Below, piece after piece: positions 50,047-61,684 of a stretch of 62,342 bases of DNA. The notes beneath the pieces are model-generated. The model did not search any database and was not told the DNA's origin. It worked only from the letters and a program-made list of their open reading frames with translations. Position 1 is the stretch's first letter. Every line of letters starts with the position of its first letter. Both the position numbers and the translations under genes were made by a program. Source of the DNA: Sulfurimonas sp. (GTDB lineage: Bacteria > Campylobacterota > Campylobacteria > Campylobacterales > Sulfurimonadaceae); assembly GCF_019429335.1 (NCBI RefSeq), contig NZ_JAHYJB010000002.1, forward strand, positions 1 through 62,342, read 5' to 3'.

Positions 50047-53000
50047 ATGCTAGACCAATTTAAAAATCAATACGCACTTTCAAAAACTTTGCGTTTTGAA
50101 CTTAAACCTCTCGGCGAAACGCTCAAACACATAGAAGCTAAAGGTCTCATTGCGCAAGATAAAACACGTGCAGAGGAGTATCAAGAAGTAAAAACAGTTA
50201 TCGATAAGTACCACAAAGCATTTATTGAAGAAGCACTTGATGCTGTTTCATTGAGTAAACTTGAAGATTACGAAATTGCGTTTTTTGATAAAAATCGCGA
50301 CGAAAAAGCTTTTGAAAAACTTCAAGATGTATTACGCAAAGAGATTGTTGTAAGTTTTAAGAAACATCCTAAGTTTGCAACATTATTTAAAAAAGAGCTT
50401 ATCAAACTTGATTTGAAAAATTGGCAGAATTTATCTGAAGAAGAAAAAGAGCTTGTGAAACACTTTGATAATTTCACTACATACTTTACTGGCTTTCATG
50501 AAAATCGTGCCAATATGTACACAGATGAAGCAAAACACTCTTCTATCGCATACCGCATCATCCACGAAAACTTGCCTATCTTTTTAACAAACCAAAAACT
50601 TTTTGAGACAATCAAACAAAAAGCACCGCATCTCGCACAAGAGACGCAAAATGCCCTGCTTGAACATCTAAATGGAGCAGTTGTAGAGGATATGTTTGAA
50701 CTAAGTTATTTCAATCGTATGCTTTCGCAAACCCATATTAATCTTTACAATCAAATGATTGGCGGTATTAAAAAGGATGAACTAAAAATTCAAGGTTTTA
50801 ATGAAAAAATCAATCTTTATCGTCAAGCAAAAGGCTTGTCTAAGCGTGATTTACCAAATCTTAAACCATTACACAAACAAATACTAAGCGACCGAGAGAC
50901 GCTCTCTTGGCTCCCAGAAGCATTTGAAAATTACGAAGAGCTTGTGAAAGGTGTGCAAACCTATTTTGGCAACGAGGTGTTAGCCTTTGAATGTTGTGAC
51001 GGTAAAGTGAATCTTTTAGAAAAGCTGCCTGAACTTTTAGCGCAAACGCAAGATTACGATTTGTCCAAAATCTATTTTAAAAATGATGTGGCGCTCACAA
51101 GTGCATCACAAGTGATTTTCAAAGATTATCGCATCATCAAAGAAGCGCTTTGGGAAGTCAATAAACCTAAAAAGTCAAAAGATTTAGCCGCAGACGAAGA
51201 GAAGTTTTTTAACAAAAAAAACAGTTATTTTAGTATTGAGCAGATTGATGGAGCTTTAAAGTCGGCTCAACTTTCTGTAAAAATGATGGAGTATTTTCAA
51301 AGCGAATCTAGTAAACTCATCGAGCAAATCCAAACCGCTTACAACGATTGGAAACAAAACAGCTCAAACAAAGAACTCTTAAAAACGTTTTTAGATACGC
51401 TACTTTCGTATCAACGGCTTTTAAAACCGCTTAATGCTCCAAACGACCTTGAAAAAGATGTGGCTTTTTATGCCTATTTTGATTCCTATTTTGCGAGTCT
51501 AAGCGGTGTGGTTAAACTCTACGACAAAGTGCGAAACTTCATGACGAAAAAACCGTACTCACTTGAAAAATTTAAACTCAATTTTGAAAACCCAGAGTTA
51601 TTGGGTGGATGGCCAGTTGACAGAGAGATTGCAACTTCATCAGTAATTTTTAAAAAAGATGGGTTATTTTACTTAGGAATATTAAGTAGTGGAAGTAAGC
51701 GTTTTTTTAAAAATCATCCTTTACCGACAGATAAAACAGATGTTATATTAAAAATGAATTATTTACAGGCAGCAGACCCAAGTAAAGATGTTCAAAATCT
51801 CATGGTAATAAATGGGAAAACTGTTAAAAAAAATGGAAGAAAAGAAAAAAGTGGAGAATTTGCAGGTGAAAATTTACAACTAGAAAGTTTAAAAAATCAA
51901 TATCTTCCAAATGAAATTAATGAAATCCGTAAAGCAAAATCATATTCAAAAATGAGCATAACTTTTAATAAGAATGATTTAGTGAAATTTATTGATTATT
52001 ATAAACAAAGAACGATTGAATATTTTAACCAGTATTCTTTTGAATTTAATGCGAGTGAAAATTACAAGGATTTTGGAGAGTTTACTGAGCATATTAACCA
52101 ACAAGCTTATCAGATTAAATTTGTTGAAATTTCACAAAGTTATTTAAATTCTCTTGTCGATGCAGGCAAGCTATACCTATTCCAAATCTACAACAAAGAT
52201 TTCTCCCCATTTAGCAAAGGTACGCCAAATATGCACACACTTTATTGGCGTGCACTTTTTGATGAAAAAAATCTCGCCGATGTAATCTACAAGCTCAATG
52301 GGCAAGCGGAGATATTTTTCCGTCAAAAGTCAATCGACTATTCCGAAGAGAAACTTAAACTTGGGCATCACCACAATACGCTTAAAGATAAATTCGCATA
52401 CCCGATTATCAAAGACCGCCGTTTCGCTTTTGATAAGTTCCAGTTTCATGTACCCATAACGCTCAACTTTAAAGCAAAGGGCAACGAAAATATCACGCCA
52501 CAAACTTTTGAGTATATTCGTGCAAATCCCGACAATATCAAAGTTATTGGTATCGACCGCGGTGAGCGCCATCTGCTCTATCTTTCACTTATTGATGCTA
52601 AAGGGCAGATTGTAGAACAATTTACACTGAATCAAATAGTAAATAGTTATAACAGTAAAGAGCATGTTATCGACTACCATGCCAAACTTGACGCAAAAGA
52701 AAAAGACCGTGATAAAGCACGTAAAGAGTGGGGAACTGTCGAAAATATCAAGGAGCTTAAAGAAGGATATTTAAGTCACGTCATCCATAAAATCGCGACA
52801 CTCATCGTTGAACACGGTGCGATCGTAGCGATGGAAGATCTCAACTTCGGCTTTAAACGAGGACGTTTCAAAGTAGAAAAACAGGTCTATCAAAAATTTG
52901 AAAAAGCGCTTATCGACAAGCTGAACTATCTGGTCGATAAGAAAAAACAGCCCGACGAGTTAGGCGGTATTTTTAACGCACTCCAACTTACGAACAAGTT

Positions 53001-53709
53001 CCAAAGCTTTGAAAAAATGGGGAAACAAAACGGATTTTTATTTTATGTGCCTGCGTGGAATACTTCTAAAATAGACCCAGTTGCAGGGTTTGTCGATCTC
53101 TTTGATACTCGTTATGCAAGTGTAGAAAAATCCAAAGCGTTTTTTGCTAAATTTAAATCCATATGCTACAACGAAACCAAAGACTACTTTGAGTTTGCAT
53201 TTGATTACAACGACTTTACCGACAAAGCCAAAGAGACTCGTAGCGAATGGACACTTTGTACTTATGGTGAGCGAATTGTGAGTTTTAGAAATGCGGAAAA
53301 AAATCACCAATGGGACAATAAAACACTTCATCTCACAACCGAATTTAAAAATTTATTTGGTAATTATACGGGTGACTTAAAAGCAACGATTTTAGCGCAT
53401 GACGACAAAGAATTTTTTGAGAAGCTTTTACGCCTTTTACGTTTTACACTTCAGATGCGTAACTCTATTACGGGTACTGACATAGATTACCTTGTCTCTC
53501 CTGTCGCAGATAAACAAGGAAATTTTTACGATAGCCGCAAAGCTCATGGTTTGTTACCAAAAGACGCCGACGCAAACGGTGCGTACAACATTGCTCGTAA
53601 AGGCTTGATGCTCATGCGTCGCATCCAAAAAGCCGATGACCTCAAAAAAGTAAATTTGGCGATTTCAAATCGTGACTGGCTCCGCTATGCTCAAGGTTTG
53701 GAGAGCTAG
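50047..53709 (+). CDS. cas12a: CRISPR effector nuclease Cas12a (Cpf1)
   Basis: The 1220-residue type V-A effector processes its own crRNA and cuts double-stranded DNA. The N-terminus LKNQYALSKTLRFELKPLGET-like block opens the WED domain, followed by REC lobes. The RuvC triad is Asp837 (IGIDRGERH), Glu930 (VAMEDLNFGF) and Asp1175 (DADANGAYN). Arg1138 in TLQMRNS matches the Nuc-domain arginine, and HHHNTLKDKFAYPIIKDRRF is the crRNA-processing region. GGAGTTTAG precedes the ATG. The segment at roughly 51640-52165 is markedly AT-richer than its flanks and covers the PAM-interacting region. All catalytic residues are intact, so it should be active. Confidence 0.97.
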   Translation: MLDQFKNQYALSKTLRFELKPLGETLKHIEAKGLIAQDKTRAEEYQEVKTVIDKYHKAFIEEALDAVSLSKLEDYEIAFFDKNRDEKAFEKLQDVLRKEIVVSFKKHPKFATLFKKELIKLDLKNWQNLSEEEKELVKHFDNFTTYFTGFHENRANMYTDEAKHSSIAYRIIHENLPIFLTNQKLFETIKQKAPHLAQETQNALLEHLNGAVVEDMFELSYFNRMLSQTHINLYNQMIGGIKKDELKIQGFNEKINLYRQAKGLSKRDLPNLKPLHKQILSDRETLSWLPEAFENYEELVKGVQTYFGNEVLAFECCDGKVNLLEKLPELLAQTQDYDLSKIYFKNDVALTSASQVIFKDYRIIKEALWEVNKPKKSKDLAADEEKFFNKKNSYFSIEQIDGALKSAQLSVKMMEYFQSESSKLIEQIQTAYNDWKQNSSNKELLKTFLDTLLSYQRLLKPLNAPNDLEKDVAFYAYFDSYFASLSGVVKLYDKVRNFMTKKPYSLEKFKLNFENPELLGGWPVDREIATSSVIFKKDGLFYLGILSSGSKRFFKNHPLPTDKTDVILKMNYLQAADPSKDVQNLMVINGKTVKKNGRKEKSGEFAGENLQLESLKNQYLPNEINEIRKAKSYSKMSITFNKNDLVKFIDYYKQRTIEYFNQYSFEFNASENYKDFGEFTEHINQQAYQIKFVEISQSYLNSLVDAGKLYLFQIYNKDFSPFSKGTPNMHTLYWRALFDEKNLADVIYKLNGQAEIFFRQKSIDYSEEKLKLGHHHNTLKDKFAYPIIKDRRFAFDKFQFHVPITLNFKAKGNENITPQTFEYIRANPDNIKVIGIDRGERHLLYLSLIDAKGQIVEQFTLNQIVNSYNSKEHVIDYHAKLDAKEKDRDKARKEWGTVENIKELKEGYLSHVIHKIATLIVEHGAIVAMEDLNFGFKRGRFKVEKQVYQKFEKALIDKLNYLVDKKKQPDELGGIFNALQLTNKFQSFEKMGKQNGFLFYVPAWNTSKIDPVAGFVDLFDTRYASVEKSKAFFAKFKSICYNETKDYFEFAFDYNDFTDKAKETRSEWTLCTYGERIVSFRNAEKNHQWDNKTLHLTTEFKNLFGNYTGDLKATILAHDDKEFFEKLLRLLRFTLQMRNSITGTDIDYLVSPVADKQGNFYDSRKAHGLLPKDADANGAYNIARKGLMLMRRIQKADDLKKVNLAISNRDWLRYAQGLES

Positions 53710-53710
53710 T

Positions 53711-54265
53711 GTGGAGCCTTATATCCCGATTTCGTTTTTAAACGATTTTATCTTTTGTCCTCGCTCGATTTACTTTCATCAGCTTTACGGCAGAAGTGAT
53801 GAAAGTTTGTATCACAGTACCGACCAAAGTGAGGGTAAAGCCGCACATGCGACAGTCGATGCAAAAACCTACACAACGGCAAAAAAAGTGCTGCAAACCA
53901 TAGAAATCTATAGCCAGACATATGGTTTAGGTGGAAAAATAGACACTTTTGACACAGCTACCGGAGTGCTAACTGAGCGTAAAAAAAAGATAAAAGTAAT
54001 CTATGACGGCTATATCTACCAACTTTATGCACAGTACCATTGTTTGGTGGAGTCGGGTTACGAGGTACATGCCATGAGACTTTACAGTATGGATGACAAT
54101 AAAGTGTACCCCATTGCATTGCCAAGTCAAGACAAAGCGCATCAGAGTGCTTTTGAATCACTTTTACAACAAATACGCATTTTTGATATGAGTGCACCCT
54201 TTGCCGTAAACCCAAACAAATGCTTTCGATGTATCTACCGTTATTTATGTGATGTGGCAATATGA
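53711..54265 (+). CDS. cas4: CRISPR-associated exonuclease Cas4
   Basis: The 184-residue protein trims pre-spacers and helps select PAM-adjacent DNA. It has the first iron-sulfur cysteine (FIFCPRSIYF), RecB-nuclease motifs GGKIDTFD, TERKKK and QLYAQYHCL, and the C-terminal cysteine cluster NPNKCFRCIYRYLC. I prefer the GTG at 53711, two bases after the cas12a stop, because GGAG at 53700-53703 is a well-spaced ribosome-binding site; an in-frame ATG at 53687 lies inside cas12a. It overlaps cas1 by 4 bp. Confidence 0.92.
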   Translation: MEPYIPISFLNDFIFCPRSIYFHQLYGRSDESLYHSTDQSEGKAAHATVDAKTYTTAKKVLQTIEIYSQTYGLGGKIDTFDTATGVLTERKKKIKVIYDGYIYQLYAQYHCLVESGYEVHAMRLYSMDDNKVYPIALPSQDKAHQSAFESLLQQIRIFDMSAPFAVNPNKCFRCIYRYLCDVAI

Positions 54266-55233
54266 TGAGTCTTCCAGATTTCAAACAAAAGCAGATCATT
54301 ATTGCACTTTTAAACCATGGCGAAAAATTGAGTTTTAAAAACGATAATTTTGTCATTACAGACGCAGATGGGAAGATTAAACATCAATCGACATGCTATA
54401 GACTTTTTGCACTTATGATAGTCGGAAATATCAGTATCACCTCGGGGCTTTTACAGCGTTCAAAGAAGTTTGGTTTTAGTATCACGCTACTAAGTTACGG
54501 GCTTATCCCCTATGGCATGTGGCAGTATAAAACCGAAGGAAATTTTCTGTTGCGACAAAAACAATACGCTTATAAAAGTAATGCTATTGCACTTCATATT
54601 GTGCAAAACAAAATCGATCAGCAGATTATCCATCTGCAAAAAAGACGTAACAAATCAGACGCTTTGACTCAAGCTATTGATAAACTTCGTGACTATCGAG
54701 GAAGACTTTTAGATGAGTCTTTAGATTTTCAAGAAATTTTAGGTGTTGAGGGCGTGGCTTCGCGACTTTATTTTGCCCACATGTTTGACAATATCGAGTG
54801 GAACGGGCGAACGCCCAGAACCAAAAAAGATATTATCAACCTTTTGTTAGATATAGGCTACATGCAACTTTTCCATCTCATAGACGCTATGCTTAATCTC
54901 TACGGCTTTGATACCTACAAAGGTGTTTATCACAAAGAGTTTTATCAGCGAAAATCTTTAGTCGCAGATATTGTAGAGCCGTTTCGACCTATAGTGGATT
55001 ATAGAATCAGAAAAGCCTATAATCTAGGACAAATCAATCCAGATGATTTTGATTTTATAAATGGTCAATACCGTCTTTTTGGAGATAAAGCAAAGCCATA
55101 TACTAAATGGCTCTTAGAAGCGATTTTGGAATATAAAAACGAAATGTTTTTGTATGTACAGCAGTACTATAGAGCATTTATGCAAGAGAGAACCATTGGT
55201 GCATACCCGATGTTTTTAGGAAAAATACCATGA
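54262..55233 (+). CDS. cas1: CRISPR integrase Cas1
   Basis: The 323-residue Cas1 has the metal-binding set Glu163 (GVEGVASRLYF), His224 (GVYHKEFYQRK) and the Asp236/Glu239 pair (LVADIVEPFRP). With Cas2 it inserts new spacers at the leader end. ATGA overlaps with both neighbours (cas4 stop and cas2 start, 4 bp each) suggest coupled translation of the whole adaptation set. Confidence 0.97.
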   Translation: MMSLPDFKQKQIIIALLNHGEKLSFKNDNFVITDADGKIKHQSTCYRLFALMIVGNISITSGLLQRSKKFGFSITLLSYGLIPYGMWQYKTEGNFLLRQKQYAYKSNAIALHIVQNKIDQQIIHLQKRRNKSDALTQAIDKLRDYRGRLLDESLDFQEILGVEGVASRLYFAHMFDNIEWNGRTPRTKKDIINLLLDIGYMQLFHLIDAMLNLYGFDTYKGVYHKEFYQRKSLVADIVEPFRPIVDYRIRKAYNLGQINPDDFDFINGQYRLFGDKAKPYTKWLLEAILEYKNEMFLYVQQYYRAFMQERTIGAYPMFLGKIP

Positions 55234-55505
55234 TTATAGTTTCATATGACATTAGTAACGACAAACTTCGTACAAGATTTTCAAAATTTCTTTTAAAATA
55301 CGGTTTTCGTTTGCAGTACTCGATATTTCAAATCCGAAACAGCAAAAGAATTTTGGCGTTAGTTTCTTCCGAAATAAAAAATAAGTTTGAAAAATGTTTC
55401 TCTCAAACAGATAGTATCATCATTTTTAATCTGAGTGAACAGTGTAAAATAACAAGGTACGGTTATGCCAAAAACGATGAGGAAGACCTAATCATAATTG
55501 ATTAA
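55230..55505 (+). CDS. cas2: CRISPR adaptation protein Cas2
   Basis: The 91-residue ferredoxin-like protein starts MIIVSYDISNDKLRTRFSKFL with the conserved Asp7 after beta-1. As a dimer it bridges two Cas1 dimers in the integration complex. It is the last gene of the cas12a-cas4-cas1-cas2 operon; the leader and array follow. Confidence 0.96.
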   Translation: MIIVSYDISNDKLRTRFSKFLLKYGFRLQYSIFQIRNSKRILALVSSEIKNKFEKCFSQTDSIIIFNLSEQCKITRYGYAKNDEEDLIIID

Positions 55506-55621: not shown

Positions 55622-58600
55622 GTCTAAAGATACCACCAAATTTCTACTGTTGTAGATTACAAAGTTTTGTACCTGCTCTACTGTGTCTAAAGATACCACC
55701 AAATTTCTACTGTTGTAGATCTATTCTTAATCCAGTTTTACTTTTTTTGTCTAAAGATACCACCAAATTTCTACTGTTGTAGATTTTGATAGTGTAAAGA
55801 TAGAGGTTGATAGTCTAAAGATACCACCAAATTTCTACTGTTGTAGATTCGGGTACATATTTATTGCCTGACGGGGTCTAAAGATACCACCAAATTTCTA
55901 CTGTTGTAGATATAAAGCAATATGTTTAGTTCACGTTGTCTAAAGATACCACCAAATTTCTACTGTTGTAGATTCAAGTGATGCACCTAGCGCAAACTCG
56001 TCTAAAGATACCACCAAATTTCTACTGTTGTAGATCTAGAAATTTCAATCCATCGTGACGAAGGTCTAAAGATACCACCAAATTTCTACTGTTGTAGATA
56101 CGAGATATTTGAACTTCTCATTATCAGGTCTAAAGATACCACCAAATTTCTACTGTTGTAGATAAAAAGCAAAACAAGCGAAGCGCAAGGGTCTAAAGAT
56201 ACCACCAAATTTCTACTGTTGTAGATCTTGTTGATATATTCTTTTAAGTCGTTGTCTAAAGATACCACCAAATTTCTACTGTTGTAGATTTGAAGCAGTG
56301 CCTCCGCCTTTTGAGGGTCTAAAGATACCACCAAATTTCTACTGTTGTAGATGAACAAAAGACGACCATTTCCACTCAAGTCTAAAGATACCACCAAATT
56401 TCTACTGTTGTAGATAAGTTCTTCGATTTTTGTTTCTTTTCGTCTAAAGATACCACCAAATTTCTACTGTTGTAGATAAAGATATTTTAAAGGCACAAGT
56501 GAGCGTCTAAAGATACCACCAAATTTCTACTGTTGTAGATGAGGATTTGTACGGGATTTTGTTTTTTGTCTAAAGATACCACCAAATTTCTACTGTTGTA
56601 GATAACCTAAAATGCCTCGTAACTGTTGCGTCTAAAGATACCACCAAATTTCTACTGTTGTAGATAAAATAACCTCAAAGAAGTAGTTTTTGTCTAAAGA
56701 TACCACCAAATTTCTACTGTTGTAGATAAGTTAAATCATTCAAATCGGCGAACAAGTCTAAAGATACCACCAAATTTCTACTGTTGTAGATTTTTACAGA
56801 TACCTCTCGACATACTCTTGTCTAAAGATACCACCAAATTTCTACTGTTGTAGATATGACAACTCCACTCTTTACAAGTCAAGTCTAAAGATACCACCAA
56901 ATTTCTACTGTTGTAGATGATAATGAAGAGATAGAAACAGAGTTGGTCTAAAGATACCACCAAATTTCTACTGTTGTAGATGAATAGCATCGGTTGGGAT
57001 TTCTCTATGGTCTAAAGATACCACCAAATTTCTACTGTTGTAGATTAGGAAGCTCCGTCATTTATGGCGGGGGTCTAAAGATACCACCAAATTTCTACTG
57101 TTGTAGATACATTAAGCAGACTTCTTAAAGAGGCAAGTCTAAAGATACCACCAAATTTCTACTGTTGTAGATCTTTACCCCTTAGTACTAGTTCGATTGT
57201 CTAAAGATACCACCAAATTTCTACTGTTGTAGATAAAATGTTTGATACGAACATAACCCAAGTCTAAAGATACCACCAAATTTCTACTGTTGTAGATATC
57301 GCTCGTTTTCGTCAAGCAGTTTGTGTCTAAAGATACCACCAAATTTCTACTGTTGTAGATATAGAATGTATAACGAAGATAAAAAAAGTCTAAAGATACC
57401 ACCAAATTTCTACTGTTGTAGATCCCAATCCACCAACGGAAGCCAACATAGTGTCTAAAGATACCACCAAATTTCTACTGTTGTAGATATAGATTTACAA
57501 TGTATTTTAGTGCCAGTCTAAAGATACCACCAAATTTCTACTGTTGTAGATTCAAGTTCTTCCATTGTCTCCATCATAAGTCTAAAGATACCACCAAATT
57601 TCTACTGTTGTAGATGTAGCTACTGCTGATTTTGCAATAGATGTCTAAAGATACCACCAAATTTCTACTGTTGTAGATAAGCAAGAGCGGCTTTTACTCT
57701 CTCATCGGTCTAAAGATACCACCAAATTTCTACTGTTGTAGATTTATAATCCAGAACACATTGCTCATTAAGTCTAAAGATACCACCAAATTTCTACTGT
57801 TGTAGATCCATTATTGCGTTAATAGTTTTTATATGTCTAAAGATACCACCAAATTTCTACTGTTGTAGATTTAGCTCACTCCTCAAGTTCTTATATTGTC
57901 TAAAGATACCACCAAATTTCTACTGTTGTAGATCACTAAATATCAAGAGCTTAAAACAAAAGTCTAAAGATACCACCAAATTTCTACTGTTGTAGATATA
58001 TTCTCGTTAAGAGTTGGTATTATTGTCTAAAGATACCACCAAATTTCTACTGTTGTAGATCTCTTAAAGAGCTATCTCGTACAAACGGTCTAAAGATACC
58101 ACCAAATTTCTACTGTTGTAGATATTCAAGCACACGCCTTTGATATAGGTCGTCTAAAGATACCACCAAATTTCTACTGTTGTAGATCTTGTGACGGTGA
58201 GAGAACACCTTTAAGTCTAAAGATACCACCAAATTTCTACTGTTGTAGATAGTAATGATGCCCTGTTGTATCTTCTAGGTCTAAAGATACCACCAAATTT
58301 CTACTGTTGTAGATGCAGGTACACTCTTCAACACTTCATCAGTCTAAAGATACCACCAAATTTCTACTGTTGTAGATCAATGCACTCTCCCTCTGCTTCA
58401 ATCTCGTCTAAAGATACCACCAAATTTCTACTGTTGTAGATAATCAAGCGGAACTATTTAGAAAGGGTAGTCTAAAGATACCACCAAATTTCTACTGTTG
58501 TAGATACAAATAGATTAATTCAACAAGGAGTGATGTCTAAAGATACCACCAAATTTCTACTGTTGTAGATAGAAAAGCACTCGAGGCTGTGTATAGTGGT

Positions 58601-61600
58601 CTAAAGATACCACCAAATTTCTACTGTTGTAGATTACCCAACTAATCCTGCTACCCCTTTTGTCTAAAGATACCACCAAATTTCTACTGTTGTAGATAAT
58701 GAATGTTAAATCCTCGTTGAACTGGTCTAAAGATACCACCAAATTTCTACTGTTGTAGATAAAGAAGCATCAACCCGCTTAGAGTAGAGTCTAAAGATAC
58801 CACCAAATTTCTACTGTTGTAGATGCAAACAAGAAAGCAGCCAAAGCAAACGGGGTCTAAAGATACCACCAAATTTCTACTGTTGTAGATGTGAGTGGGG
58901 CAAAATTCCCTGCTACTGTCTAAAGATACCACCAAATTTCTACTGTTGTAGATAACTAAATGTTAATAATCTACAAATAACGTCTAAAGATACCACCAAA
59001 TTTCTACTGTTGTAGATTTTGTCTACACTTTGTAGCTTCATCCCGTCTAAAGATACCACCAAATTTCTACTGTTGTAGATAGAGTGGTCGTCATACCCTG
59101 CTTCTGCGTCTAAAGATACCACCAAATTTCTACTGTTGTAGATATGAAACTCAAAAACAGACCAATGAGGCGTCTAAAGATACCACCAAATTTCTACTGT
59201 TGTAGATTCATGACTCTGGACTTTATCATAGTGCAGTCTAAAGATACCACCAAATTTCTACTGTTGTAGATAAATAGCTCTCTCTGGTTTTTCTTCTTTT
59301 GTCTAAAGATACCACCAAATTTCTACTGTTGTAGATATGAAGATTCAATAGCATTGTATAAATTGTCTAAAGATACCACCAAGTTTCTACTGTTGTAGAT
59401 GCACCATGTAAAACACTACAATAAACGCAGTCTAAAGATACCACCAAATTTCTACTGTTGTAGATAAACCTCGTCTATCTTATAAGGGATTGTGGTCTAA
59501 AGATACCACCAAATTTCTACTGTTGTAGATTTTTTTACGTCAATAACCATTGATAAAGTCTAAAGATACCACCAAATTTCTACTGTTGTAGATTTTGTAC
59601 CAATATCAAAGAATGTATCTGGTCTAAAGATACCACCAAATTTCTACTGTTGTAGATTGTACAATTTCATCATCTCACAAGCTCTGTCTAAAGATACCAC
59701 CAAATTTCTACTGTTGTAGATAGAAGAGAACTTGCTCTTTTGCTATTTTGTCTAAAGATACCACCAAATTTCTACTGTTGTAGATTTCCAATTCTCTTGA
59801 TGTATCTCGTGACGTCTAAAGATACCACCAAATTTCTACTGTTGTAGATATGAGTTTGAAGCAGATAGTGACAAGATGTCTAAAGATACCACCAAATTTC
59901 TACTGTTGTAGATTCATATTCAATCTCATATAAAAATGATAGTCTAAAGATACCACCAAATTTCTACTGTTGTAGATGAATATCATCAAGCTCTGGATGT
60001 TGTCGTCTAAAGATACCACCAAATTTCTACTGTTGTAGATGGAAATTTATTTAAAGGATAGGTGTATGGTCTAAAGATACCACCAAATTTCTACTGTTGT
60101 AGATTAATGAGCTTAATACGGGGGTTGTGGAAGTCTAAAGATACCACCAAATTTCTACTGTTGTAGATGTCTGTCAAAACGCATTTCGTGGATATGGTCT
60201 AAAGATACCACCAAATTTCTACTGTTGTAGATGTCGCAAAAGTTGTAAAAGTAAATGCAAAAAGTCTAAAGATACCACCAAATTTCTACTGTTGTAGATT
60301 AATGAGCTTAATACGGGGGTTGTGGAAGTCTAAAGATACCACCAAATTTCTACTGTTGTAGATTTAGGAGGAATATTGCACAAAAAGGTTGTCTAAAGAT
60401 ACCACCAAATTTCTACTGTTATAGATTACTATTTACCCCTCTTAAAGCCCTATTGTCTAAAGATACCACCAAATTTCTACTGTTGTAGATATGCAGCAAC
60501 CTTTTGTTTTCTTCTATGTCTAAAGATACCACCAAATTTCTACTGTTGTAGATGTCTATCAAAACGCATTTCGTGGATATGGTCTAAAGATACCACCAAA
60601 TTTCTACTGTTGTAGATGCAATTCCTTCAAGCACATCACAAACGTCTAAAGATACCACCAAATTTCTACTGTTGTAGATAAGGTATAGACTTTAAAAGTA
60701 GCGGGTGTCTAAAGATACCACCAAATTTCTACTGTTGTAGATCACTAATCTTCGCCTCTTCCTCTTTTAGGTCTAAAGATACCACCAAATTTCTACTGTT
60801 GTAGATTATAGCTCCCATCTTCGACGTAGTGGTGTCTAAAGATACCACCAAATTTCTACTGTTGTAGATTGGACGCAAAAGCAAAAGAAAAAGGATGTCT
60901 AAAGATACCACCAAATTTCTACTGTTGTAGATCAACGAGCTTAATACGGGTGTTGTGGAAGTCTAAAGATACCACCAAATTTCTACTGTTGTAGATTTAA
61001 ATAGTCCTACCAGAGCAACACTGTGTCTAAAGATACCACCAAATTTCTACTGTTGTAGATAGGGCATTGATTTTAAGAGCAGTGGCGTCTAAAGATACCA
61101 CCAAATTTCTACTGTTGTAGATGCAAGAGCTTTAATCTTTAGAGATTTGGTCTAAAGATACCACCAAATTTCTACTGTTGTAGATTACAGACTCCGAAGC
61201 CATTTTCTCAGCCGTCTAAAGATACCACCAAATTTCTACTGTTGTAGATACGACTGGATTTGACGCTGTCCACATCGGTCTAAAGATACCACCAAATTTC
61301 TACTGTTGTAGATATCAACTTTGCTATCTAAAACGTCTCTTGTCTAAAGATACCACCAAATTTCTACTGTTGTAGATGCTGTTAGTTCTCTTGTGGTTGT
61401 TACAGTCTAAAGATACCACCAAATTTCTACTGTTGTAGATGTGGAAGAGAAGCTTAGAATACAAAAGTCTAAAGATACCACCAAATTTCTACTGTTGTAG
61501 ATATTGCATCCGCCATTATCTCACAAATAGTCTAAAGATACCACCAAATTTCTACTGTTGTAGATCATTACGCAGGACAGATAAGCTGACTATGTCTAAA

Positions 61601-61684
61601 GATACCACCAGATTTCTACTGTTGTAGATGTCGGGCATATAGAGCGAAATGAATTTAGTCTAAAGATACCACCAAATTTCTACT
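55622..61684 (+). CRISPR. Type V-A CRISPR array, 95 full repeats plus one partial
   Basis: The 36-bp repeat reads GTCTAAAGATACCACCAA followed by ATTTCTACTGTTGTAGAT. The 3' part folds into the Cas12a handle TCTAC-TGTT-GTAGA, so crRNA is read on the plus strand with spacers 3' of each repeat. Counting every start, I find 95 complete repeats and a final repeat cut after 27 bases (61658-61684), enclosing 95 spacers of 26-31 bp, mostly 27-28. Three repeats carry one change each: starts 59365, 60391 and 61594, all in the distal third. Spacers 71 and 74 are identical, and several others are close variants. Confidence 0.98.

What the first reader, a model, noticed from the sequence alone, without database searches (positions are those of the whole stretch)
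60169..60581. Third variant pair: spacers 72 and 78 differ at one synonymous site
Spacer 72 (60169-60196) and spacer 78 (60554-60581) differ only at position 5 (G/A). On the complementary strand the frame reads His-Ile-His-Glu-Met-Arg-Phe-Asp-Arg, and the change is GAC/GAT, both Asp. Three independent sets within about 1 kb of array, all purely synonymous, argue for repeated encounters with one phage family over time.
Basis: partly seen in the sequence, partly recalled or inferred. Interest (0 to 1): 0.7.

Follow-up and report, generated by a model that had tools for sequence, protein, structure and literature searches.

The report
Near-twin spacers in Cas12a CRISPR array
Two entries in a bacterium's Cas12a immune memory differ by one letter, most likely because the same spot was sampled from two variants of one invader; this is ordinary CRISPR record-keeping, and its 'synonymous' reading proves nothing on its own.

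Summary
Spacers 72 and 78 of a 95-spacer type V-A (Cas12a) array differ only at position 5 (G/A), far beyond chance, and neighbouring spacers do not repeat, so it is not a block duplication. 'Synonymous' carries no weight for this pair: each of the 28 possible transitions in spacer 72 is silent in at least one open frame, and this one is silent in two (HIHEMRFDR and LSKRISWI). No target was found: 0 viral contigs, 0 of 30 phage records, and only the array itself among related genomes. The other two sets do have conserved phage targets: 71/74/84 a D12-class adenine methylase, 80/86 a phage primase-polymerase; 77, 89 and weakly 87 fall in the same replication module. One 17-kb phage contig carries homologues of both genes, but only 1 of 85 primase records does. 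As a control, 55 arrays of other CRISPR types from the same order hold 15 variant and 22 identical scattered spacer pairs among 2,161 spacers, so this array is not exceptional (P about 0.2). Best reading: repeated sampling of one site from variants of an unidentified element. Ordinary biology.

The parts
60169..60196 (+). Spacer 72 (28 nt), G at position 5; the younger of the pair if the array grows at the cas2 side
60554..60581 (+). Spacer 78 (28 nt), A at position 5; otherwise identical to spacer 72
60105..60132 (+). Spacer 71, encodes NELNTGVVE of a phage D12-class adenine methylase; identical to spacer 74
60300..60327 (+). Spacer 74, identical to spacer 71
60933..60960 (+). Spacer 84, 3-difference variant of 71/74, same peptide NELNTGVVE
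60680..60706 (+). Spacer 80, encodes GIDFKSSG of phage bifunctional primase-polymerase
61061..61086 (+). Spacer 86, 8-difference variant of spacer 80, same peptide
60491..60517 (+). Spacer 77, complementary strand IEENKRLLH; homologous site IEESKRLLH in the methylase of phage contig L026, PAM TTTC
61123..61149 (+). Spacer 87, ARALIFRDL; weak match to ARALIIREL in the prim-pol (PAM there TATG, not TTTV)
61250..61277 (+). Spacer 89, TTGFDAVHI; homologous to TTGFDAPHV of the phage helicase, PAM TTTA
55622..61684 (+). CRISPR array: 95 full 36-nt repeats, a truncated 96th (61658-61684), 95 spacers
50047..53709 (+). cas12a (1220 aa; REC1, RuvC_1, NUC domains)
53672..54265 (+). cas4
54262..55233 (+). 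cas1
55230..55505 (+). cas2; the 116 bases between it and the array are the likely leader (inferred)
   Evidence: leader role inferred

Best explanation
[quoted passage not shown] Spacers 72 and 78 are two separate acquisitions of the same 28-nt protospacer from two variants of one mobile element, probably a tailed phage, that differ at one base in the PAM-proximal seed. Mechanism (steps from the literature and inference): Cas4-Cas1-Cas2 picks a DNA piece next to a TTTN/TTTV PAM and inserts it at the leader end, so 78 is older than 72. When a variant with a changed seed base came by, the same site was sampled again. Shown here: the pair, the array anatomy, and phage-gene targets for the two neighbouring sets. 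Inferred: independent acquisition, phage origin of this pair, and order in time. The target gene and its reading frame are unknown.
For: One difference in 28, about 3e-11 by chance. Complete V-A locus. Neighbouring spacers do not pair up in the same order, so no block duplication. Two interleaved neighbouring sets carry 3 and 8 differences and map to conserved phage proteins, which in-array mutation cannot easily explain. Repeats are nearly free of mutation (3 variant bases of 3,420). Scattered same-site pairs recur in two other V-A arrays of the order: G287 15/17, with lengths that differ by one base, and G733 8/27 and 13/25. Literature: F. novicida V-A acquires spacers behind TTTV (PMC9419969, passages) or TTTN (PMC13034035, passages).
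Against: No target found for 72/78 in any search; phage origin and PAM are therefore untested for this pair. A single difference could also arise by mutation inside the array. If only 10-19 spacers come from a phage with about 2,000 TTTV sites, just 0.02-0.09 coincident pairs are expected, so uneven site choice or retention must be assumed.
Confidence: 0.65

Rival explanations
1. One acquisition, then a copy of that spacer unit elsewhere in the array by recombination between repeats, then a point mutation in one copy.
For: In-array copies that later mutate do occur: in a control array (L270) spacers 37/44 differ by one base inside a seven-spacer duplicated block. From the repeat variation (3 of 3,420) a copied 28-nt spacer pair would carry a mutation about 5% of the time (my arithmetic).
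Against: Neighbours of 72 (71, 73) and of 78 (77, 79) do not match, so a single unit would have to move alone. The companion sets differ at 3 and 8 sites in codon-like patterns.
Confidence: 0.18
2. Escape and re-acquisition (a narrower form of the best explanation): Cas12a pressure from spacer 78 selected a seed mutant of the same phage line, which was then re-sampled at the same site.
For: Position 5 lies in the seed (recalled); 71/84 also differ at positions 1 and 4, and 80/86 at 2 and 5. PMC10132644 (abstract seen): phages escape mainly through PAM and seed mutations.
Against: PMC9419969 (section read) found no primed adaptation in F. novicida V-A with a seed-mutated target, so nothing known drives re-sampling of the same site. 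80/86 differ at 8 sites spread over third codon positions, which looks like natural divergence. The same pattern is common in arrays of other types.
Confidence: 0.12
3. Assembly or sequencing error.
For: Draft genome of 73 contigs; long arrays are hard to assemble.
Against: Spacers are unique apart from the sets named and spaced regularly; only 3 of 3,420 repeat bases vary.
Confidence: 0.04

Closest known systems
Type V-A CRISPR-Cas (Cas12a with cas4, cas1, cas2), e.g. Francisella novicida U112
   Same: Gene set and order, Cas12a domains, repeat ending TCTACTGTTGTAGAT, spacers of 26-31 nt, TTTV-like PAM at homologous sites of several targets
   Different: A 95-spacer array with three sets of same-site spacers; nothing in the machinery differs visibly
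Same-site variant or repeated spacers in other CRISPR arrays (control arrays of this order)
   Same: Scattered near-identical or identical spacer pairs; 15 variant (4 mismatches or fewer) and 22 identical in 55 arrays
   Different: The controls have no V-A repeats; their types were not assigned here
Re-acquisition driven by seed escape or priming in type I systems
   Same: Same phage sampled again after a seed change
   Different: Priming was not seen in V-A (PMC9419969), and here neither escape nor priming is shown

Membership tests
Type V-A CRISPR-Cas | Cas12a effector with REC1, NUC and RuvC domains | tested here: met
   PF18501, PF18510, PF18516 above cut-offs
Type V-A CRISPR-Cas | cas4-cas1-cas2 next to the effector and array | tested here: met
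Type V-A CRISPR-Cas | Repeat with the 3' stem-loop TCTAC...GTAGA | tested here: met
   repeat GTCTAAAGATACCACCAAATTTCTACTGTTGTAGAT; the stem-loop as hallmark is recalled
Type V-A CRISPR-Cas | 5' TTTV PAM at protospacers | tested here: inconclusive
   At homologous sites: TTTC for 77, TTTA for 89, TTTA or TTTG in some records for 80, TTTA in L013 and L018 for 84/71; but TATG for 87, AGGG for 10, and TTCA/TATA in other records. No exact protospacer known; none at all for 72/78
Independent acquisition of one protospacer from phage variants | Both alleles found in target elements | tested here: inconclusive
   No target of 72/78 found; for 71/84 and 80/86 only homologues 3 or more mismatches away, so the true targets are not in the collections
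Independent acquisition of one protospacer from phage variants | Not part of a duplicated block | tested here: met
   neighbouring spacers do not match in order
Seed-escape re-acquisition | Phage carrying the new allele escapes the old spacer | not testable with these tools
   needs a phage and plaque assays

The most novel reading that the evidence does not exclude
In V-A arrays of this order the adaptation machinery, or selection on spacers, returns again and again to the same few protospacers in essential phage replication genes, catching each new seed allele. That would be a site-specific updating of memory without priming. Scattered same-site pairs in 3 of 4 V-A arrays parsed (one of them this window) hint at it; outside the window 3 pairs were seen with 0.55 expected from other array types, P about 0.02, a small post hoc sample.
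Probability: 0.12. Interest if true: 0.5.

Novelty: new member of a known kind. Interest (0 to 1): 0.2.

Why it matters
If the pair does come from successive phage variants, the array is a dated record of which bases of a phage changed under Cas12a pressure, without primed adaptation. As it stands it mainly shows that a silent single change in one spacer is no evidence of a reading frame, and that near-twin spacers are common in CRISPR arrays of this order.

Tried and rejected
Target of 72/78. HIHEMRFDR in IMG/VR: 0 contigs. IHEMRFD (pattern also allows Ser for Arg and Glu for Asp): 21 contigs, in unrelated proteins or short spurious frames. QNAFRGY frame: 1 contig, spurious short frame. KTHFVDM frame: 0. 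Exact 23-mer: 0. HIHEMRFD in genome contigs: 1 hit, a 15-codon frame in a Deltaproteobacterium MAG, 5 mismatches to spacer 72. Pattern in 397 class genomes and, with 3 mismatches, 228 family genomes: only the array itself. 30 phage records with 3 mismatches: 0 (20, 10). blastn to phages and plasmids: only partial matches with E 0.4 or worse. All five open frames scored against phage ORFs with shuffled controls: none stood out.

VRR-NUC idea: L026 has EHIHQVTF at the start of a VRR-NUC-like protein (the name is recalled; PHROGs call relatives endonuclease or Holliday junction resolvase); rejected because the conserved Q and W of the family do not fit HIHEMRFDR.

Provirus in the genus: the prim-pol of L026 rang in 0 of 135 genomes at E 1e-20; no positive control was available there.

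Poor or dropped rows: only two candidates per genome were scored, so it is not a full search. In one search some control arrays were counted more than once; the numbers used come from the de-duplicated. Of 27 variant pairs, 12 with more than 4 mismatches were left out of the rate as possibly chance. Of 60 regions fetched as controls, 54 gave an array; one of the 60 (G372) is from a genome with cas12a and gave none; the type of the control systems was not assigned. Regions of G615, G372 and G424 hold cas12a hits but no array was parsed there. The genome sets of the family and order searches overlap.

Full report
What is there. The window ends in a type V-A CRISPR-Cas locus: cas12a (50047-53709), cas4, cas1, cas2 and an array of 95 full repeats plus a truncated one, with 95 spacers. 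Repeats are nearly uniform; 3 of 3,420 bases vary. The cas2 side carries the likely leader, so low-numbered spacers should be younger (inference from known polarity). Spacers 72 and 78 sit towards the old end and differ only at position 5. Chance cannot give this (about 3e-11).

Is the synonymous argument sound? Not for this pair. Five of six frames are open in both spacers, and the change is silent in two of them: HIHEMRFDR on the complementary strand and LSKRISWI on the + strand. All 28 possible transitions in spacer 72, and 72 of 84 possible substitutions, are silent in at least one open frame; over all spacers 2,259 of 2,616 transitions are. For 71/84 (3 differences) random changes give a silent frame about 10% of the time; for 80/86 (8 differences) 0.02%. 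Only 80/86 is strong evidence for a coding frame from the array alone.

Targets of the companion sets. NELNTGVVE of 71/74/84 occurs in 10 IMG/VR contigs (pattern, which also allows Phe for Leu: 8 with Leu, 2 with Phe), in a protein that reads [YF]DLFGGG...YNE[LF]NTGVVELL; a relative of it, in L026, scores to Pfam MethyltransfD12. F[KE]GIDFK[ST]SG of 80/86 occurs in 20 IMG/VR contigs in a bifunctional primase-polymerase (the L026 copy scores to Prim-Pol, PriCT_2 and PHROG 3022). Named relatives of that protein lie in phages of about 38-61 kb, such as Pseudoalteromonas phage H103, 40% identical. Spacer 77 fits the methylase of contig L026 (IEESKRLLH, PAM TTTC), 89 fits the helicase (TTGFDAPHV, PAM TTTA), and 87 weakly the prim-pol; against 40 shuffles each, 77, 80, 86 and 89 stand well above the best shuffle and 87 only just. 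L026 carries prim-pol, Sak4-like protein, SSB, RecE-like exonuclease, helicase and methylase together. Against a single family: only 1 of 85 prim-pol records carries this methylase (many records are fragments), and in L026 the 71/84 site reads NEFNEAVVN. Spacer 10 has an exact nine-residue match in a GpA-type terminase of a different record that carries the methylase, G503, but without a TTTV PAM.

Target of 72/78. None. The searches are listed under Tried and rejected. This neither confirms nor refutes phage origin, because the true targets of the other spacers are not in the collections either; their best matches are homologues 3 or more mismatches away.

Is it unusual? Other V-A arrays of the order were parsed: G287 (24 spacers) has one repeated site 15/17, G733 (34 spacers) has two, 8/27 and 13/25, in opposite order so not a block copy, and G349 (22 spacers) has none. 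As a control, 60 regions around cas1 genes of the order gave 55 arrays in 54 regions with 2,161 spacers and no V-A-like repeat. Outside neighbours and collinear blocks they hold 22 identical pairs and 27 variant pairs, 15 of them with 4 mismatches or fewer, in 9 arrays. At that rate this array should hold 2.3 such pairs; it holds 4 (71-74, 71-84, 74-84, 72-78), P about 0.2. Counted as variant pairs only, 3 against 0.9, P about 0.07; as sets, 2 against 0.9, P about 0.24. The other three V-A arrays hold 3 against 0.55, P about 0.02, from a small post hoc sample. So the pattern is ordinary, with a faint hint of excess in V-A.

Mechanism. Same-site sampling from variants is the simplest account. 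Under even sampling of about 2,000 TTTV sites, 10-19 spacers from one phage give 0.02-0.09 coincident pairs, so site choice or retention must be uneven; the controls show that this is general. In the one V-A study read for this point, priming by a seed-mutated target was not seen, while acquisition hot spots tied to RecBCD were (PMC9419969, passages and one section). Seed changes are a main phage escape route (PMC10132644, abstract). Whether 72 answers an escape from 78 cannot be told here.

Literature on near-twin spacers was searched with no directly fitting paper among the listings; I do not claim that none exists.

That it belongs to the Campylobacterota is my recollection of the gene content and was not tested.

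Noticed in passing
window 57046-57072 (spacer 23); L067, L068, L065, L066: Spacer 23 matches with one mismatch a hairpin-like stretch in four genomes of the same genus; in L067 it lies about 28 nt downstream of a TnpB (OrfB_IS605) gene and has a TTTC PAM: a Cas12a spacer aimed at the end of a TnpB transposon, near where its guide RNA would be made.
   Followed up: partly
L118 1048-2937; window 56227-56253 (spacer 10): Spacer 10 has an exact nine-residue match (NDLKEYINK, 4 nt mismatches) in a GpA-type phage terminase of a record that also carries the NELNTGVVE methylase; the site there lacks a TTTV PAM.
   Followed up: partly
L226 (G733), L225 (G287): Other V-A arrays of the order hold scattered identical spacers, in G733 in opposite order (8/27, 13/25), so not block copies.
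   Followed up: partly
L316 spacers 1 and 12; L283 spacers 43 and 62: Control arrays show the same codon-like variant pattern, e.g. YRLLTP[AS]QIE read from two diverged spacers and a TTCGAC/TTTGAT pair; the frames are my reading and were not checked against targets.
   Followed up: no
window 61658-61684 and after: The array ends in a repeat cut off after 27 bases, followed by an ATPase-like fragment; possible deletion at the old end. The ATPase label is my impression and was not searched.
   Followed up: no
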